DNA from: Candidatus Methylomirabilis tolerans
Lineage (GTDB): Bacteria; Methylomirabilota; Methylomirabilia; Methylomirabilales; Methylomirabilaceae
Length of the DNA: 48,167 bases
Direction: 5' to 3'
Assembly: GCA_019912425.1 (NCBI GenBank)
Contig: JAIOIU010000142.1
Coordinates: forward strand, 1-48,167
Position numbers and translations under genes: made by a program. Of the stretch, positions 3,397 through 46,422 are shown one piece after another. Under the pieces are notes generated by a model. The model saw only the letters and a list, made by a program, of their open reading frames with translations. It was not told where the DNA came from and made no database searches. Each line of letters opens with the position of its first letter. Positions within the stretch are counted from its first letter, which is position 1.

Positions 3397-4653
3397 ATGC
3401 ATCATTTCCAGTATCGTGGCGATCAGCTTATGTGCGAAGACCTGCCGATCGAACGGATTGCTGAGGAGGTCGGCACGCCGTTCTATCTGTATAGCCATGC
3501 CACGCTCACACACCATTTCCGGACCTTTGATCAGGCGTTCGCCGACATCCCCCACCTGGTCTGTTTTGCGATCAAGGCCAACTCCAACGGCGCGACCCTG
3601 AAGCTCTTTGCCGACCTTGGAGGCGGCGCCGACGTCGTATCGGGCGGGGAGTTGTATCGTGCCATGAGGGCCGGCATTCCGCCCAGTCGGATCGTTTTTG
3701 CGGGAGTGGGTAAGACCCGTGAGGAAATGGGGTTCGCCCTGAAGTCCGATATCCTGATGTTTAACGTAGAATCCCCACAGGAACTCCGCCTGTTGAACGA
3801 CGTGGCCGGGGCCATGGGGACGAAGGCGAGGGTGGCGTTGCGGATCAACCCGGACGTCGATCCTAAAACCCATCCGTATATTTCGACCGGGCTGAAGAAG
3901 AGTAAGTTCGGCATCGACATCTCCCTGGCGATGGAGGAGTACCGAGTCGCCAAGGAACTGCGCCACATCGATGTCGTTGGGGTCCATCAGCATATCGGGT
4001 CCCAAATCACAGAGATCGCGCCCTTTGTAGACAGCCTGGTCAAGGTTGCGGGCCTGATCGCCCAACTTCGGGAACACGGCTTTGCCATCAAGTATCTGGA
4101 TGTCGGTGGCGGGCTCGGGATTACCTATAAGGATGAAGATCCGCCTGTGCCGAGGGTCTTTGCGGAAGCGATGATTGCCGTCATTAAGGATCTCGGCTGC
4201 ACCATCGTGCTGGAGCCAGGACGGGTGATTGTTGGAAATGCGGGGGTCCTGGTGACAAAGGTGCTCTACGACAAGCGCACACCCGCCAAGCACTTTATCG
4301 TGGTTGATGCCGGGATGAACGACCTGGTCCGCCCGAGCCTGTACGGTTCTTTCCACTCTATCCTCCCCGCGCGGCGTCAGAAAGGTCGGGAGGAGGTGAT
4401 GGCTGATGTAGTGGGTCCTGTCTGTGAGTCTGGTGATTTCTTGGCCAAGGACCGGTCTATGCCGGTCCCTGAGTCGGGAGAGCTGTTGGTTGTGATGAGT
4501 GCCGGCGCCTATGGCTATACGATGTCATCCAGCTATAATAGCCGACCTCGGCTACCGGAGATCATGGTGAAAGGAGATCGTTGGTTCACGATCCGCGAGC
4601 GAGAAAGCTACGAAGATCTGATCCGTGGCGAGCGACTCCCTGAGGAGCTATAG
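3397..4653 (+). CDS. lysA: Diaminopimelate decarboxylase
   Basis: Catalyses the last step of lysine synthesis, meso-diaminopimelate to L-lysine and CO2, with PLP. The PLP lysine is Lys60 in FAIKANS. Further family motifs follow in order: HQHIGSQ, DVGGGLG (phosphate-binding glycine loop), EPGR, then CESGDFLAKDR, which supplies the active-site cysteine and substrate contacts from the partner subunit, and GAYGYTMSSSYNSRPR. The frame is open upstream to 3256, but ATG 3397 has a GAGGAG ribosome site and gives 418 residues, the normal length. It heads the lysine/DAP block and has a plausible promoter at 3335-3363. Confidence 0.97.
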   Translation: MHHFQYRGDQLMCEDLPIERIAEEVGTPFYLYSHATLTHHFRTFDQAFADIPHLVCFAIKANSNGATLKLFADLGGGADVVSGGELYRAMRAGIPPSRIVFAGVGKTREEMGFALKSDILMFNVESPQELRLLNDVAGAMGTKARVALRINPDVDPKTHPYISTGLKKSKFGIDISLAMEEYRVAKELRHIDVVGVHQHIGSQITEIAPFVDSLVKVAGLIAQLREHGFAIKYLDVGGGLGITYKDEDPPVPRVFAEAMIAVIKDLGCTIVLEPGRVIVGNAGVLVTKVLYDKRTPAKHFIVVDAGMNDLVRPSLYGSFHSILPARRQKGREEVMADVVGPVCESGDFLAKDRSMPVPESGELLVVMSAGAYGYTMSSSYNSRPRLPEIMVKGDRWFTIRERESYEDLIRGERLPEEL

Positions 4654-34980: not shown

Positions 34981-35541
34981 TAAAACAGAGTTTGATTATC
35001 TGACCATTGATCCCACCTCACTCGCCTGCTTCGTCCTGCGTAAAGCTCTCGCAGGCATCTATTAAAATATCCGGAGGAGAGTTGGTCAGATTCCTACCGA
35101 ATATCTGCTTCCCAAAGAGATTTGTTCGATTTTACGAGGTGAGTCACCGGATGAGGGCACATGTTTCCCTCGAAGCTGGTCGCGAGCCTTCCGAGGCCTT
35201 CAAGACGGGTTGATGGAGTTCTGTGCGGGAAAGTTGACCGTCTATAAGTGCCTCAGGATGTGACATTCATAGAGCGGATCACGCGCCTCGCCGGCTCTGG
35301 CACCGGTAGACTCCTCCGCCAGTAGGAACAGGACAAGGCACAGACAGAGATAAAAATGCTGTCGAGGTTCGTAAACAGTTGGGCCGCGCAGCTTGAGGCC
35401 GCCGCCGACGAATCGCCATAAGATGAGATCTTGTGGCGATTCGATCAGGTAGACCAACTCTCGCTCCGTTACGAGAGAATCGGGAGTTTGAAAACTGACC
35501 CGCTTTGCGGCAACTCAACTATCTTATTACACAAAGATAAA
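34981..35541. other. 560-base gap without a supported gene
   Basis: No convincing reading frame, RNA gene or repeat family was found. Short frames at 35007-35213 (plus) and 35242-35457 (minus) have no recognisable domain or good start. A 13-base inverted repeat lies at 35410-35442. The gap marks the border between the conserved block to the left and the accessory region with AT-rich DNA to the right. Confidence 0.5.
35410..35442. repeat. 13-bp inverted repeat with 7-base loop
   Basis: GAATCGCCATAAG (35410-35422) faces CTTGTGGCGATTC (35430-35442), pairing at 12 of 13 positions. No T-run follows on either strand, so it is more like a protein-binding site or a mobile-element scar than a terminator. 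It lies 100 bases before the glycosyltransferase start. Confidence 0.5.
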
Positions 35542-37161
35542 ATGAAACTTTTCTCTATTTACACAAATCAGACGTTGGTACTGAAAGATCAATGGTTTTT
35601 AAAAACACTTCAAGATGATTGGGAATTACACCTGATATATCTTAAGGACGCACCAAAAGGAGATGGCGATTACTTGTCTGATGAATGGTACTATTGCATA
35701 AAATCAAAGATAGCGCTTCTTATTGAAGCAATCAAAAATAATTGGAATGCTGTTATTATTTGGGCAGATATTGATATACAGTTTTTCAGAAGATGCACGG
35801 ATATTATCGAACAGTCTATACAAAATAATGATATCGTTTTTCAAATTTGGAACAAGAAAAAGAAAGAAGTTAATTCTGGATTCATGGCAATCCGCTGCAA
35901 TGAAAAAACTCTTGCTTTTTTTAAAACTGTGCTAGCTACTCCTTTTAAAGATAGGAAATATGCGGATCAAGACATAATCAATGATATGTTAAAGCAAGGC
36001 TCGATGTCTATTCGTTGGGGATTCTTCGGCCGCGAAATTTATCACATTGGTCTGGGTGTAGTACCCTTCAATATTGTGTTGCATCACGCGTGCGGCACGT
36101 CGGCACCTTTTATTAAATATGGCAGAAAAATTAGTTCAATTGAACTCAAGATTAAACAGCTCACAAGACTAAGACGAGTTAAGGGATTTTATTTGTGGAT
36201 CAGTACGTCTATTGTCCTTAAAAAACTAATTAAATATATAGTACATAGGTTAAATTGGCGGGTAAAGAAGCGGATAAGGTATGTAGGCTGGAATGGAATC
36301 AGAGTAGCTTACTATAAAAATATATACGCGAAAATCATTCTAAAAACTAAACCGATGGTCTGCACCGATGAAGGACGGTTTGAGTTGCACACATTGACGT
36401 GCGAGAAGGATTCGTTAAATACTCTGTGGTCTCTGAAGACTTTTTGCACTTTCAGCGAGGTTCGGCCAAGAGTGGTCATATATGATGATGGATCTCTAAG
36501 CGAGGCCGCTATAGATATATTCTCGGAACATTTTTTAAACTGTCAGATCATCCGGCGAGACAGGTTTCATCGGGACATGGAAGATTTCTTAAAGGTTCAT
36601 AGAATGAGCTTGGAGAATAGTAAGATGAAGTCTTTCTATTTGGCCCTCAAGCTGTTTGGACCGATGTACTATGCGAAATCTGAGTACATACTATGCTTGG
36701 ATTCCGACGTGCTTTTCTTTCAAAAACCCAGGGAGATGCTGAAGCACATGGAGAACGGAACGCCGTTTTACATGAACGATTACCAGAATGCCTATTCCCA
36801 TCCGATAGAACTCCTGAATAGCCTGCTTAAAATTAATCTCCCGCATAGGATAAACTCTGGCTTGTTCTATATTGCCAAGAGAGACTTTGCCGATAATATC
36901 GGTCTTGTGGAATCTTATTTTAGAAAGGTTCCGAAATGTTACGGTATGGGATGGCTTGAACAAACGCTGGCCGCGATACTTCTTTCGAAGGCCAACGCGG
37001 TGAGGCTGAGCAGCGATTACCAAATCTCCAGGGAGCCTGTCACTGATGAGACCATAAGCCACCATTTTGTGAATGACGGTTCACGCCCGGATTTTTATGC
37101 GGTCGGGTTGAGGCGGCTTAAATCGGCGGGATTTATCAAAAAACTTGGAGATCCGGCGTGA
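35542..37161 (+). CDS. Two-domain glycosyltransferase-like protein
   Basis: A 539-residue protein with two GT-A-like halves. Domain 1 (about 1-200) has WADIDIQFF with Asp76-x-Asp78 and NSGFMAIR (111-118), the pattern of nucleotide-diphospho-sugar transferases (GT77-like). Domain 2 (about 270-539) repeats it: CLDSDVLFF with Asp387-x-Asp389, NSGLFYIA from Asn438, and LEQTLAA. The donor and acceptor sugars cannot be told. The first ~800 bases are AT-rich, unlike everything around them, and the composition rises near 36350 where domain 2 begins, which suggests a fusion of genes with different histories. ATG 35542 is chosen; an earlier TTG frame lacks a site and the family start. Confidence 0.8.
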   Translation: MKLFSIYTNQTLVLKDQWFLKTLQDDWELHLIYLKDAPKGDGDYLSDEWYYCIKSKIALLIEAIKNNWNAVIIWADIDIQFFRRCTDIIEQSIQNNDIVFQIWNKKKKEVNSGFMAIRCNEKTLAFFKTVLATPFKDRKYADQDIINDMLKQGSMSIRWGFFGREIYHIGLGVVPFNIVLHHACGTSAPFIKYGRKISSIELKIKQLTRLRRVKGFYLWISTSIVLKKLIKYIVHRLNWRVKKRIRYVGWNGIRVAYYKNIYAKIILKTKPMVCTDEGRFELHTLTCEKDSLNTLWSLKTFCTFSEVRPRVVIYDDGSLSEAAIDIFSEHFLNCQIIRRDRFHRDMEDFLKVHRMSLENSKMKSFYLALKLFGPMYYAKSEYILCLDSDVLFFQKPREMLKHMENGTPFYMNDYQNAYSHPIELLNSLLKINLPHRINSGLFYIAKRDFADNIGLVESYFRKVPKCYGMGWLEQTLAAILLSKANAVRLSSDYQISREPVTDETISHHFVNDGSRPDFYAVGLRRLKSAGFIKKLGDPA

Positions 37162-37541: not shown

Positions 37542-37781
37542 CAAGTGTCTGAACTCCCGAAGACCTGCTTCGCGTCGGGTGCCGAACCCGCTGCGCATGC
37601 TCGTTCTGGGGGAGGAAGTAGAGGACGGAGTACCGCATCTGCTGACGGAGCCGCACACCCCACTCGCTTGTCGGCAGGCGTCTATGGTAGTGTTTAGCTG
37701 AGAGTTCGTGATACATGAGGTATTTCCGAACGAGAATCGACACAATCACAGCTTTTCAGCCTTGTGAGGGAGGGACAGATT

Positions 37782-38210
37782 ATGGTGAACGCATCGAGCA
37801 GTTCAATTCGCGTTCTCTCCGGATCGAGAACATTCGGACCGAGAACACAATCAGTCGAAATAAGAAACGGCTCGAAAAAGCAGGTGACGGTGTATCTCGA
37901 AAAATTAGGCAGCGAACACTTTAGCATCCCCGATTCATGTCAGAAGTTGACAGTGAAGCCCGGCACTTCGGCGCGGGTGCAGGTGAAGTTTCAGGTCCCG
38001 GAAAAAGGCATGGTAATGACCTTGAGCGCGACCTACAGGGCGATGATCAAGGTGTGGGTGCTCAAGAAGGGAAAGGGGGCAAAGAAAGAGCTTGTGGATA
38101 TGTTTGATGTGACGGGTAGTGGTCCGGGATTTGTTTCATTGGACAGTCTGCATTGTTTTGATCCAACAGGTTCGCGTAGACAATATAAAGCCGGAAGGAG
38201 GACACCATAA
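37782..38210 (+). CDS. Ig-like (ASH-type) beta-sandwich protein, unknown function
   Basis: A 142-residue protein not recognised by name. Residues about 8-75 alternate like an immunoglobulin-fold strand set (FGPRTQSVEIRNGSKKQVTV ... F.I ... LTVKPGTSARVQVKFQVP), resembling ASPM/SPD-2/Hydin-type domains, with a strand-rich tail ending in basic residues. There is no signal peptide or membrane segment. ATG 37782 has a strong GAGGGAGGG site. The stop codon overlaps the next gene's start (TAATG), so the two proteins are made together and may interact. GC content is near that of the genome. Confidence 0.6.
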   Translation: MVNASSSSIRVLSGSRTFGPRTQSVEIRNGSKKQVTVYLEKLGSEHFSIPDSCQKLTVKPGTSARVQVKFQVPEKGMVMTLSATYRAMIKVWVLKKGKGAKKELVDMFDVTGSGPGFVSLDSLHCFDPTGSRRQYKAGRRTP

Positions 38211-39070
38211 TGGCGGCTCCAACGATAACCATCAGCAGCGTGATACCGGGCACCTCTATTCCGGCTAACACCGGAGACGTCGAGGTGAGTTGGGGTGTCA
38301 GCGACACGCCCCCGAATGCCGCGACGGCGGTGTGGTTGGGAAGCGGGACGCTGGGGATGGAGGTGCTACCGGAAGGCGTCTTTACAGACGAGGGTGGCGG
38401 AGCGTCCAACGTCTTTCCGACGACCAGCGATTCATATGCTATGAGTATCATCCGCACGTCGTTCATCAATATCTATGCGACGAATGAAGACGGCGGTACC
38501 ACCGATCAGGAGACCTTTTACGCCAAAATACGAGTCGGCTATCACGACGCGACCGTCCCAGGCGCTCCGGTACGAGAGAGCGATCTTGATCTCATTCGAG
38601 GATATTTGGAGGAAATAGATCGTAGGCTCAATGACAATGTTCTGACGAACCTGCCCGACTATATTGAAGAATTCAATAGCCGGGTTCCTGCGGGTGAGGG
38701 CTTTCCTGATTTCGCCGATATGGACTATCTGAGTGGCGGAGTGGGTACGGGCAATCTTACTGACGACATACTTGCCGCCATGCGGGATGCGCTGATCTAT
38801 ATTAGTCCCGCCACAATGCCCCGCGGCTACCGGCCGGGCACGATCACAGATGCTGAGCGAAGGGCGTTGTGTGAGGAGTATGAACACGATGGCAGGACAG
38901 TCACAGTATATGGACAATCGACTCGTGAGTGGGTATCCATTTGTCTGGATCGTGGTGCGGACGACTTGACGCTTCTTCATGAACTGTTTCATTATGCTTC
39001 GACTTCAAATAATGGAAATGAGGCGAGAGCGGCCGCCGTATCCATGTGTGCGTATAATTGGCTTCCATGA
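38210..39070 (+). CDS. Putative zinc metallopeptidase with N-terminal Ig-like domain
   Basis: A 286-residue protein not assigned to a named family. Residues 1-120 look like a beta-sandwich (TITISSVIPGTSIPANTGDV...WGVS) and may be Ig/FN3-like. A helical middle follows (SDLDLIRGYLEEIDRRLNDN). The C-terminus has a zincin core, LLHELFHYAS with His257-Glu258-xx-His261, and Glu271 in GNEARAAA 14 residues after the first His, a plausible third ligand. No signal peptide, so it would act inside the cell or be exported by another route. It overlaps the Ig-like gene by one base and has a GGAAGGAGG site. Protease activity is inference; the substrate is unknown. Confidence 0.6.
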   Translation: MAAPTITISSVIPGTSIPANTGDVEVSWGVSDTPPNAATAVWLGSGTLGMEVLPEGVFTDEGGGASNVFPTTSDSYAMSIIRTSFINIYATNEDGGTTDQETFYAKIRVGYHDATVPGAPVRESDLDLIRGYLEEIDRRLNDNVLTNLPDYIEEFNSRVPAGEGFPDFADMDYLSGGVGTGNLTDDILAAMRDALIYISPATMPRGYRPGTITDAERRALCEEYEHDGRTVTVYGQSTREWVSICLDRGADDLTLLHELFHYASTSNNGNEARAAAVSMCAYNWLP

Positions 39071-43035: not shown

Positions 43036-44133
43036 TTGGAAGACCCTATTCGATCAATGGGTTCGAGGGTAAACATCCCCCCAGAGGGAACCGCGCTGCT
43101 TACCTTAGTGCGAGCCTCCCTGTCGGCAATCCCTCCTGTGTTCGAGGGCTTTCTCTCCTCGCTCGATTGGGATTTGTTCCTGCGGTTGACTCGGCATCAT
43201 CGGCTTGAGCCGCTTCTCTGTTATGGCCTCCGAAACTCTCGCTTTGCTGGGATACCGACTGAGATTCGTGAGGAGTGGGAGGCGCGCCGCCGGACGTCAA
43301 TCGCTACCGCTCTGTACCATCAGGAAGCGCTGAGAGAAATCGCAGCGGCTTTCGCAGATCGTGGCCTTCCATTTGTTGTCTTGAAGGGTGAGGCGCTCTC
43401 GAAGGCATTCTACCCCCAGGAAGGCCTACGACCTTACGGAGATATCGATCTTCTCATCCGACCAGAGACCTACGAGTTGGCAAAAGCGACGCTGATGAGC
43501 CTTGGATTTCGACTTCGACAGACGGTCAACGAGGCGGAAAAGCTCCGTCTCTTCGGAGAGATTGAGTTCGATAAAGAGGGTCCCGTGACCATGACGGTGG
43601 ACCTCCACTGGGACACGCTGATGGCTTCCTGGGAGCCACAATCGTTGCTGAGCGACCACGGAACATGGGCGTCCCTTGATCAAGTTCGCCTGGGAAGTCA
43701 TGCCATACCGATCCTCAAGGGGGAGGTTCTCCTGATCTACCTCTGTGTTCATTTTGCATTTCATCATACATTTGACGGGCTAATTCTCCTCTGTGATCTC
43801 TTCCTGGTTCTCAAGCATGACGCAGAGAGGATCGACTGGGATCGCCTCATTGCGATGGCGAACCGATGTCAGTGTCGGCATGCGCTCTACTGGTCCCTCT
43901 ATTTTGCCAAATCACTCATGGCTGCTCCGGTGCCAGACTCAATTCTTGACCGGCTGCGACCAAATGTACTGATCCGGGCCCTCATGCCAACCACTCGATT
44001 GCTGTTTCGAGAGAGCTTGGTCTCTCAGATGCTGGAACGATACATCAAGTTCCTCTTGATCGATACTCAGAAGGGGCGTTGGCGAGCACTGCAAGTCTGG
44101 CTTCAATCAAGCAAGCGACTCTTCGGGAGGTGA
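43036..44133 (+). CDS. Uncharacterised nucleotidyltransferase family protein
   Basis: A 365-residue protein of the NTP_transf_5-like (uncharacterised nucleotidyltransferase) family, often found beside polysaccharide or peptide modification genes. FVVLKGEALSKAFYPQEGLRPYGDIDLLI contains the polymerase-beta-type GDID pair (Asp136, Asp138), and VDLHWDTL and LCVHFAFHHTFDGLILLCDL follow as is usual. The role is unknown. The start is TTG 43036 with an AAGGA only two bases before it, or ATG 43057 without a site. A short hairpin follows the stop. Confidence 0.8.
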   Translation: MEDPIRSMGSRVNIPPEGTALLTLVRASLSAIPPVFEGFLSSLDWDLFLRLTRHHRLEPLLCYGLRNSRFAGIPTEIREEWEARRRTSIATALYHQEALREIAAAFADRGLPFVVLKGEALSKAFYPQEGLRPYGDIDLLIRPETYELAKATLMSLGFRLRQTVNEAEKLRLFGEIEFDKEGPVTMTVDLHWDTLMASWEPQSLLSDHGTWASLDQVRLGSHAIPILKGEVLLIYLCVHFAFHHTFDGLILLCDLFLVLKHDAERIDWDRLIAMANRCQCRHALYWSLYFAKSLMAAPVPDSILDRLRPNVLIRALMPTTRLLFRESLVSQMLERYIKFLLIDTQKGRWRALQVWLQSSKRLFGR

Positions 44134-45961: not shown

Positions 45962-46010
45962 TTGACCCCTTCGGTCCTCATAGGCTAGTATGATTGTACA
46001 ATTGTACAAT
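45962..46010 (+). promoter_or_regulatory. Toxin-antitoxin promoter with an 18-bp palindromic operator
   Basis: TTGACC (45962-45967) and TAGTAT (45986-45991) are 18 bases apart, and the perfect palindrome ATTGTACAATTGTACAAT (45993-46010) covers the expected start point. Such operators are bound by the antitoxin or the toxin-antitoxin complex. A GGGAG ribosome site follows before ATG 46024. Confidence 0.6.
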
Positions 46011-46023
46011 AAAAGGGAGTGCA

Positions 46024-46422
46024 ATGAACATTGTTGTAGATACCTCTGCCATCATTGCCGTTGTGACGAATGAAAAGCATAAGAGGCAGATGGTTGAAGT
46101 GACCAAAGGCACTGAACTTATTGCCCCTGCTTCCATTCCGTGGGAGATCGGCAATGCATTCTCAGCGATGTTCAAACGCAAACGGATGAACGTGCGGCAG
46201 GCCAAGGCAGCGCTACGGGCATATGACAAGATTCCGATTCAGTTTATTGATATCCCACTGGGGGAAGCTCTCGATCTGGCCGCCAATCTCGACATCTACG
46301 CGTATGATGCCTACTTTATCCAGTGTGCCCTGAAGCATAAGAGTCCTCTTTTGACGCTGGATCGAGATCTTTGCCGTGCTGCCCGAAGCGCTGGAGCAGC
46401 CGTGATCGAGGTGGAGCCATGA
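46024..46422 (+). CDS. PIN-domain toxin (VapC family)
   Basis: A 132-residue PIN-domain ribonuclease toxin. The acidic metal site is complete: Asp6 (VVDTSAI), Glu41 (IPWEIGNA), Asp95 (YAYDAYFIQCA) and Asp113 (LLTLDRDL). VapC-type toxins cut tRNA or rRNA and stop growth until neutralised. It precedes its antitoxin gene and overlaps it by four bases (ATGA), the reverse of the usual vapB-vapC order. ATG 46024 has a GGGAG site, and the promoter is covered by an 18-base palindrome. Confidence 0.92.
   Translation: MNIVVDTSAIIAVVTNEKHKRQMVEVTKGTELIAPASIPWEIGNAFSAMFKRKRMNVRQAKAALRAYDKIPIQFIDIPLGEALDLAANLDIYAYDAYFIQCALKHKSPLLTLDRDLCRAARSAGAAVIEVEP

What the first reader, a model, noticed from the sequence alone, without database searches (positions are those of the whole stretch)
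37782..39070. Two-gene cassette: Ig-like protein plus a putative HExxH metallopeptidase
The genes overlap (TAATG) and have strong ribosome sites. The first is an ASH/Ig-like beta protein. The second has an Ig-like N-terminus, a helical middle and a C-terminal HELFH with Glu271 as possible third zinc ligand. Neither has a signal peptide and neither matches a family I know. A coupled adaptor-protease pair next to an orphan antitoxin and foreign DNA could be an effector, defence or delivery system. This is the strongest candidate for something undescribed here.
Basis: inference. Interest (0 to 1): 0.65.

Follow-up and report, generated by a model that had tools for sequence, protein, structure and literature searches.

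The report
Mobile two-gene zinc-peptidase/Ig-like cassette
A rare two-gene unit carries an acidic, zinc-peptidase-like protein and a small basic Ig-like partner; it has jumped as a pair between unrelated bacteria and belongs to no described family, so it is probably a small protease module of the toxin/defence type, although no activity has been shown.

Summary
ORF1 (37782-38210, 142 aa) and ORF2 (38210-39070, 286 aa) overlap as TAATG, and each has a strong Shine-Dalgarno. The host is a Candidatus Methylomirabilis MAG; 13 congeners lack the pair. One relative was found: an Acidiferrobacteraceae MAG (DRJZ01000169.1) carries both genes, in the same order, with the same overlap, alone between nadE and bamD. 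Identity is 75% for ORF2 and 58% for ORF1, with dN/dS 0.12 and 0.27. DNA similarity stops at the two ORFs, so the pair is the unit that moves or is retained. HELFH (257-261) and Glu271 are conserved. ORF2 matches no family. ORF1 is a sub-threshold ASH/MSP-type Ig-like protein. ORF2 is acidic with one lysine; ORF1 is basic and lysine-rich; both traits hold in both genomes. In congeners the same chromosomal site carries PIN, HicB, DUF433/DUF5615 and TIR genes. The nearby HigA is independent of the pair. Best reading: a horizontally moving protease-partner module in which ORF2 is a C-terminal minizincin peptidase and ORF1 its bound Ig-like inhibitor or chaperone. Structure prediction failed, so fold, zinc, activity and partnership are unproven.

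The parts
37782..38210 (+). ORF1 (P1), 142 aa, basic (pI 10.3), lysine-rich, predicted all-beta ASH/MSP-type Ig-like protein without signal peptide
38210..39070 (+). ORF2 (P2), 286 aa, acidic (pI 4.2), one lysine; Ig-like N-terminal third (about 1-110), helical middle, C-terminal HExxH domain
37767..37774 (+). Shine-Dalgarno AGGGAGGG of ORF1; a purine-rich site also precedes ORF1 in L004
38195..38201 (+). Shine-Dalgarno AAGGAGG of ORF2, inside the end of ORF1; identical AAGGAGG in L004
38208..38212 (+). TAATG stop/start overlap, same in L004
38966..39016 (+). codons of the 17-residue invariant run LTLLHELFHYASTSNNG (residues 253-269)
38978..38992 (+). HELFH codons (residues 257-261)
39020..39022 (+). 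Glu271 codon, candidate third zinc ligand (motif ExRA), conserved in L004
37612..39113 (.). species-specific islet: outside these bounds at least one congener aligns on each side (HigA tail up to 37611 in G004; 39114 onward in G013)

Best explanation
The pair is a horizontally moving two-gene module. Shown: the two ORFs are conserved together, in order, with the same translational coupling, in two phyla, and DNA similarity is confined to them. Inferred: ORF2 is a zinc peptidase of the minimal gluzincin type. Strand EWVSIC is followed by the active helix LTLLHELFHYA, a short loop, and a glutamate helix with E271, right at the C-terminus. ORF2 carries its own Ig-like domain and a helical linker. 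Inferred: ORF1, a small basic ASH/MSP-type sandwich made first and in coupled amounts, binds the acidic ORF2 and keeps it inactive or folded until the partner is released or removed. ORF2 would then cut an unknown target in its own cell or in an invader, as in a protease-inhibitor or toxin-antitoxin-like accessory module. The near-absence of lysine in ORF2 suggests selection against self-cleavage at lysine or against lysine modification.
For: Pair conserved in order with the same TAATG overlap and ORF2 Shine-Dalgarno in an unrelated gammaproteobacterium. DNA similarity (72%) covers only the two ORFs, with no meaningful similarity in 80 bp on either side. Purifying selection in both genes, dN/dS 0.12 and 0.27. 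Sites without the pair exist at both loci. H257/E258/H261/E271 conserved; motif rare by chance. Opposite, conserved charges: pI 10.3/9.3 against 4.2/4.5. ORF2 has 1 lysine in both genomes, 0 Lys in 148 residues at variable positions against 11 Arg, while ORF1 is 9% Lys in both. In congeners the same chromosomal site holds PIN, HicB, DUF433/DUF5615 and TIR genes. A precedent for a small intracellular C-terminal HExxH protein exists (PMC3890501).
Against: ORF1 has no DNA-binding domain and no match to a known inhibitor, antitoxin or immunity family. Toxicity, zinc binding, proteolysis and ORF1-ORF2 contact are all untested. Only two distinct homologues are known, so E271 and the pairing rest on one comparison. 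The AlphaFold model of ORF2 is worthless (pLDDT 34) and does not even place HELFH in a helix. The hotspot also carries non-defence genes (transporter, glycosyltransferase).
Confidence: 0.38

Rival explanations
1. ORF1 is a substrate-recruiting adaptor or sensor, not an inhibitor: its ASH/MSP-like sandwich binds a target peptide or surface and presents it to the peptidase ORF2, as an intracellular quality-control or anti-phage protease.
For: Eukaryotic MSP/ASH domains are peptide-binding adaptors, and the best weak fold matches of the ORF1 model are of that class (VAP-A MSP, SCS2, OCRL1 ASH, CEP192). A TIR gene sits at the equivalent site in a congener.
Against: Foldseek E-values are no better than 6.5e-3 on a model with pLDDT 43. 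No PADLOC match for either protein. No sensor domain.
Confidence: 0.25
2. The pair is an exported or injected effector with its partner or chaperone (type 1/6 secretion or contractile particle cargo), ORF2 acting outside the cell and ORF1 protecting the producer.
For: Ig-like domains are common in exported proteins; HExxH domains are common in polymorphic toxins (PMC3482391); three conserved cysteines in ORF2.
Against: No signal peptide or lipobox visible in either protein (sequence read by eye). No secretion genes next to the pair at either locus; the flanks are nadE/bamD, and HigA/formate-nitrite transporter. No hit in phage, plasmid or viral collections.
Confidence: 0.17
3. ORF2 is not a peptidase: HELFH is a conserved structural or metal-storage site, and the pair is a two-subunit binding protein (for example a carrier or adhesion pair).
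For: Other stretches of ORF2 are as invariant as the motif (17-residue N-terminus, 16-residue YLSGGVGTGNLTDDIL), and a 17-residue identical run is not exceptional at this identity (P=0.27). No profile recognises a peptidase.
Against: HExxH is rare by chance (0.28%); the uncharged-flank zincin consensus and a downstream ExxA are met and conserved.
Confidence: 0.2

Closest known systems
Minimal zincins (PF06262/DUF1025 mini-zincin; minigluzincins)
   Same: HExxH close to the C-terminus, little sequence beyond the third ligand, no signal peptide (PMC3890501)
   Different: No sequence match; E at +10 after the second His instead of HExxHxxGxxD; added Ig-like domain; fixed partner gene
ImmA/IrrE (COG2856, M78) with Xre regulator
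   Same: Intracellular HExxH peptidase encoded in a mobile two-gene module (PMC2701414); resemblance of LTLLHELFH...ExRA to the M78 active-site layout is from memory only
   Different: No Pfam/NCBIfam match; partner is an Ig-like sandwich, not an HTH regulator
Protease-inhibitor operons (e.g. serralysin with Inh; intracellular proteinase inhibitor BsuPI)
   Same: Protease gene next to a small beta-sandwich or beta-barrel protein (from general knowledge); BsuPI appears as a weak fold match of ORF1 (rank 19)
   Different: No sequence similarity; gene order reversed; no secretion signals
ASH / MSP / choice-of-anchor-D Ig-like domains (PF15780 and relatives)
   Same: ORF1 residues 21-71 align to PF15780 at E=0.0013; predicted seven-strand sandwich
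   Different: Below the curated cut-off; free-standing, basic, no signal peptide, coupled to a peptidase-like gene

Membership tests
Zincin metallopeptidases (clan MA) | HExxH with uncharged flanking residues | tested here: met
   TLLHELFHYA at 254-263, conserved in L004
Zincin metallopeptidases (clan MA) | third zinc ligand C-terminal of HExxH (Glu for gluzincins) | tested here: inconclusive
   E271 at +10 conserved in both homologues; the model is too poor to show geometry
Zincin metallopeptidases (clan MA) | zincin fold and bound zinc, proteolysis | not testable with these tools
   AlphaFold mean pLDDT 34; no experiment possible
ImmA/IrrE (M78) | match to the Pfam M78 model or an NCBIfam model | tested here: not met
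   no such hit at E up to 10 in Pfam or up to 1 in NCBIfam
ImmA/IrrE (M78) | partner HTH/Xre repressor | tested here: not met
   ORF1 is predicted all-beta; HigA is not part of the conserved pair
ASH (PF15780) | score above gathering cut-off | tested here: not met
   19.3 bits against 27
ASH (PF15780) | Ig-like sandwich fold | tested here: inconclusive
   seven strands, ASH/MSP-class fold matches with E above 6e-3, pLDDT 43
Type II toxin-antitoxin modules | mobile, coupled two-gene module with patchy distribution | tested here: met
Type II toxin-antitoxin modules | known toxin or antitoxin family | tested here: not met
   no Pfam/NCBIfam/PADLOC match to a toxin or antitoxin for either protein
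Type II toxin-antitoxin modules | toxicity of one protein neutralised by the other | not testable with these tools
   needs expression

The most novel reading that the evidence does not exclude
A new kind of mobile two-gene module in which a lysine-avoiding minizincin protease is held in check by a lysine-rich, free-standing ASH-type Ig-like protein, i.e. a protease toxin or defence effector with an Ig-like antitoxin or inhibitor that may itself be cut at lysine to release the protease.
Probability: 0.12. Interest if true: 0.75.

Novelty: new variant of a known kind. Interest (0 to 1): 0.42.

Why it matters
If the reading holds, it adds an undescribed zinc-peptidase family and an unusual Ig-like partner to the mobile two-gene modules that bacteria exchange, with a clear experimental handle (E258A, co-expression). 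The lysine asymmetry is a concrete, testable clue to specificity.

Tried and rejected
Family libraries Pfam, PHROGs, PADLOC, NCBIfam: nothing for ORF2, only sub-threshold ASH for ORF1. PDB sequences: only incoherent weak hits. Viral contigs, phages and plasmids: nothing; a HELFHYA DNA match in a viral contig (L040) lies in no open frame of that kind (genes there run on the other strand) and was rejected. About 1450 genome searches (repeat searches of the same genomes counted): the one extra hit (G1204, E=0.0046) is antisense to a sulfite-reductase flavoprotein-like (CysJ) gene and was rejected. AlphaFold of ORF2 failed, so no fold search was made with it. HigA as part of the system: rejected, because it occurs without the pair and vice versa. 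Integron attC, transposon ends, terminal repeats: no inverted repeats and no convincing direct repeats at the borders, no Rfam match; the mechanism of movement is unknown. Homology of ORF1 to the ORF2 N-terminus: none. M35 aspzincin: considered from memory; no Pfam match and no room for its distal Asp ligand after HELFH.

Full report
OBSERVATION. The two ORFs are present as described. ORF1 runs from ATG 37782 to TAA 38210 (142 aa); a GTG six codons upstream is possible, but the Shine-Dalgarno fits the ATG. ORF2 runs from 38210 to 39070 (286 aa). The genes overlap by one base (TAATG), and an AAGGAGG site for ORF2 lies inside the end of ORF1. HELFH is at residues 257-261 and E271 exists. In shuffles of the protein HExxH arises in 0.28%, and in 0.036% with the uncharged flanks expected of zincins.

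HOST AND DISTRIBUTION. An identical contig is labelled Candidatus Methylomirabilis sp. (L003), and a same-species assembly carries the same segment at 100% identity; these two may be the same record. None of 13 other Methylomirabilis genomes nor about 80 further related genomes has either gene. A scan of about 85,000 species genomes found exactly one other relative, in an Acidiferrobacteraceae MAG (L004, DRJZ01000169.1). That scan relied on short exact peptide patterns; only LHELFHYA matches L004, so further relatives may have been missed. Profile searches of samples of Gammaproteobacteria, Pseudomonadota and two other phyla added none. Phage, plasmid and viral collections are empty.

THE PAIR IS THE UNIT. 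L004 has both genes in the same order with the same TAATG overlap and the same AAGGAGG. Proteins are 75% (ORF2) and 58% (ORF1) identical. dN/dS is 0.12 and 0.27, with dS 1.4 and 0.9, so both are genuine proteins under purifying selection. Nucleotide similarity (72%) starts 13 bases before the ORF1 start and ends at the ORF2 stop; flanks are unrelated. In L004 the pair alone lies between nadE and bamD. In a relative (G102) the same nadE-bamD interval holds 5.9 kb of other genes, the flanks aligning up to L004 3412 and from 4836.

THE METHYLOMIRABILIS SITE. In congeners the interval between the IclR-type regulator and the formate/nitrite transporter is variable. G013 joins window 37554 directly to 39114; G008 joins 35116 to about 39120; G004 carries HigA up to 37611 and then the transporter. 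In several congeners an acyl-CoA ligase sits there; the window retains only its first codons near 35080 (by eye). In the congeners the ligase-transporter interval carries a TIR protein, HicB, DUF433/DUF5615, PIN toxin, PDDEXK-like and transporter genes. So the pair lies in an integration hotspot rich in TA and TIR genes. HigA is independent of the pair. No terminal repeats or RNA-family match explain the movement.

ORF1. Best Pfam match is ASH (PF15780, E=0.0013, below the cut-off); the homologue's best is Cep192_D4, a similar domain. By eye it carries the pattern of ASH/choice-of-anchor-D domains (FSIPDSC...LTVKPGTSARVQVKF). AlphaFold from two sequences gives seven strands at pLDDT 43, and Foldseek ranks VAP/SCS2 MSP, OCRL ASH, CEP192 and FixG-type sandwiches, none significant. 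I take the Ig-like sandwich as likely and anything finer as unproven.

ORF2. No family in four libraries, no PDB sequence relative. AlphaFold failed (pLDDT 34). Reading the alignment: N-terminal third strand-rich (SWGVSD, YATNEDGGTT pattern of fn3/Ig-like domains, by eye); helical middle (VRESDLDLIRGYLEEIDRRLNDNVLT); C-terminal strand EWVSIC, then LTLLHELFHYASTSNNG, then ExRAxAxSMCAYNxLP. This matches the order strand, active helix, glutamate helix of a minimal gluzincin, and small intracellular zincins with the motif near the C-terminus are documented (PMC3890501). Caution: identical runs as long as that around the motif are expected at this identity (P=0.27), so conservation supports but does not prove catalysis.

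A NEW CLUE. ORF2 has one lysine (K106) in 286 residues and its homologue one in 282, the lowest fraction among the ORFs compared in the window and in L004. Among 148 residues at positions that differ or are gapped, none is lysine while 11 are arginine (chance about 0.001-0.004 from local lysine usage). ORF1 is 9% lysine in both genomes and exchanges Arg and Lys freely. The proteins also have opposite charge in both genomes (pI 10.3/9.3 and 4.2/4.5). Inference: direct contact, and selection against lysine in ORF2, for instance to avoid self-cleavage by a lysine-directed peptidase or to avoid lysine modification.

CONCLUSION. The most likely function is a protease-partner accessory module with ORF2 as a minizincin and ORF1 as its Ig-like inhibitor or chaperone (0.38). 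Adaptor, exported effector and non-catalytic readings remain open.

Noticed in passing
38210-39070 and L004:3951-4799: Extreme lysine avoidance (one Lys per protein) in ORF2 next to a 9% lysine ORF1, conserved in both genomes.
   Followed up: partly
about 35080-35118: Remnant of the first codons of an acyl-CoA ligase gene (GQIPTEYL.PKE) that is intact in congeners; the window species has lost the rest, replaced by a low-GC (33-45%) glycosyltransferase-like gene 35431-37161 and HigA.
   Followed up: partly
L044:1612-2214, 4022-4620; L046:679-1056; L048:2020-3262: The ligase-to-transporter site in other Methylomirabilis genomes carries TIR, DUF433/DUF5615, PIN and PDDEXK-like genes: a small integration hotspot.
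   Followed up: partly
43036-44133: NTP_transf_5 nucleotidyltransferase (PF14907, E=1e-53) with a weak AbiEii match in PADLOC.
   Followed up: no
45994-46422: PIN-domain (VapC-like) gene; with orphan HigA, another TA-type gene in the same region.
   Followed up: no
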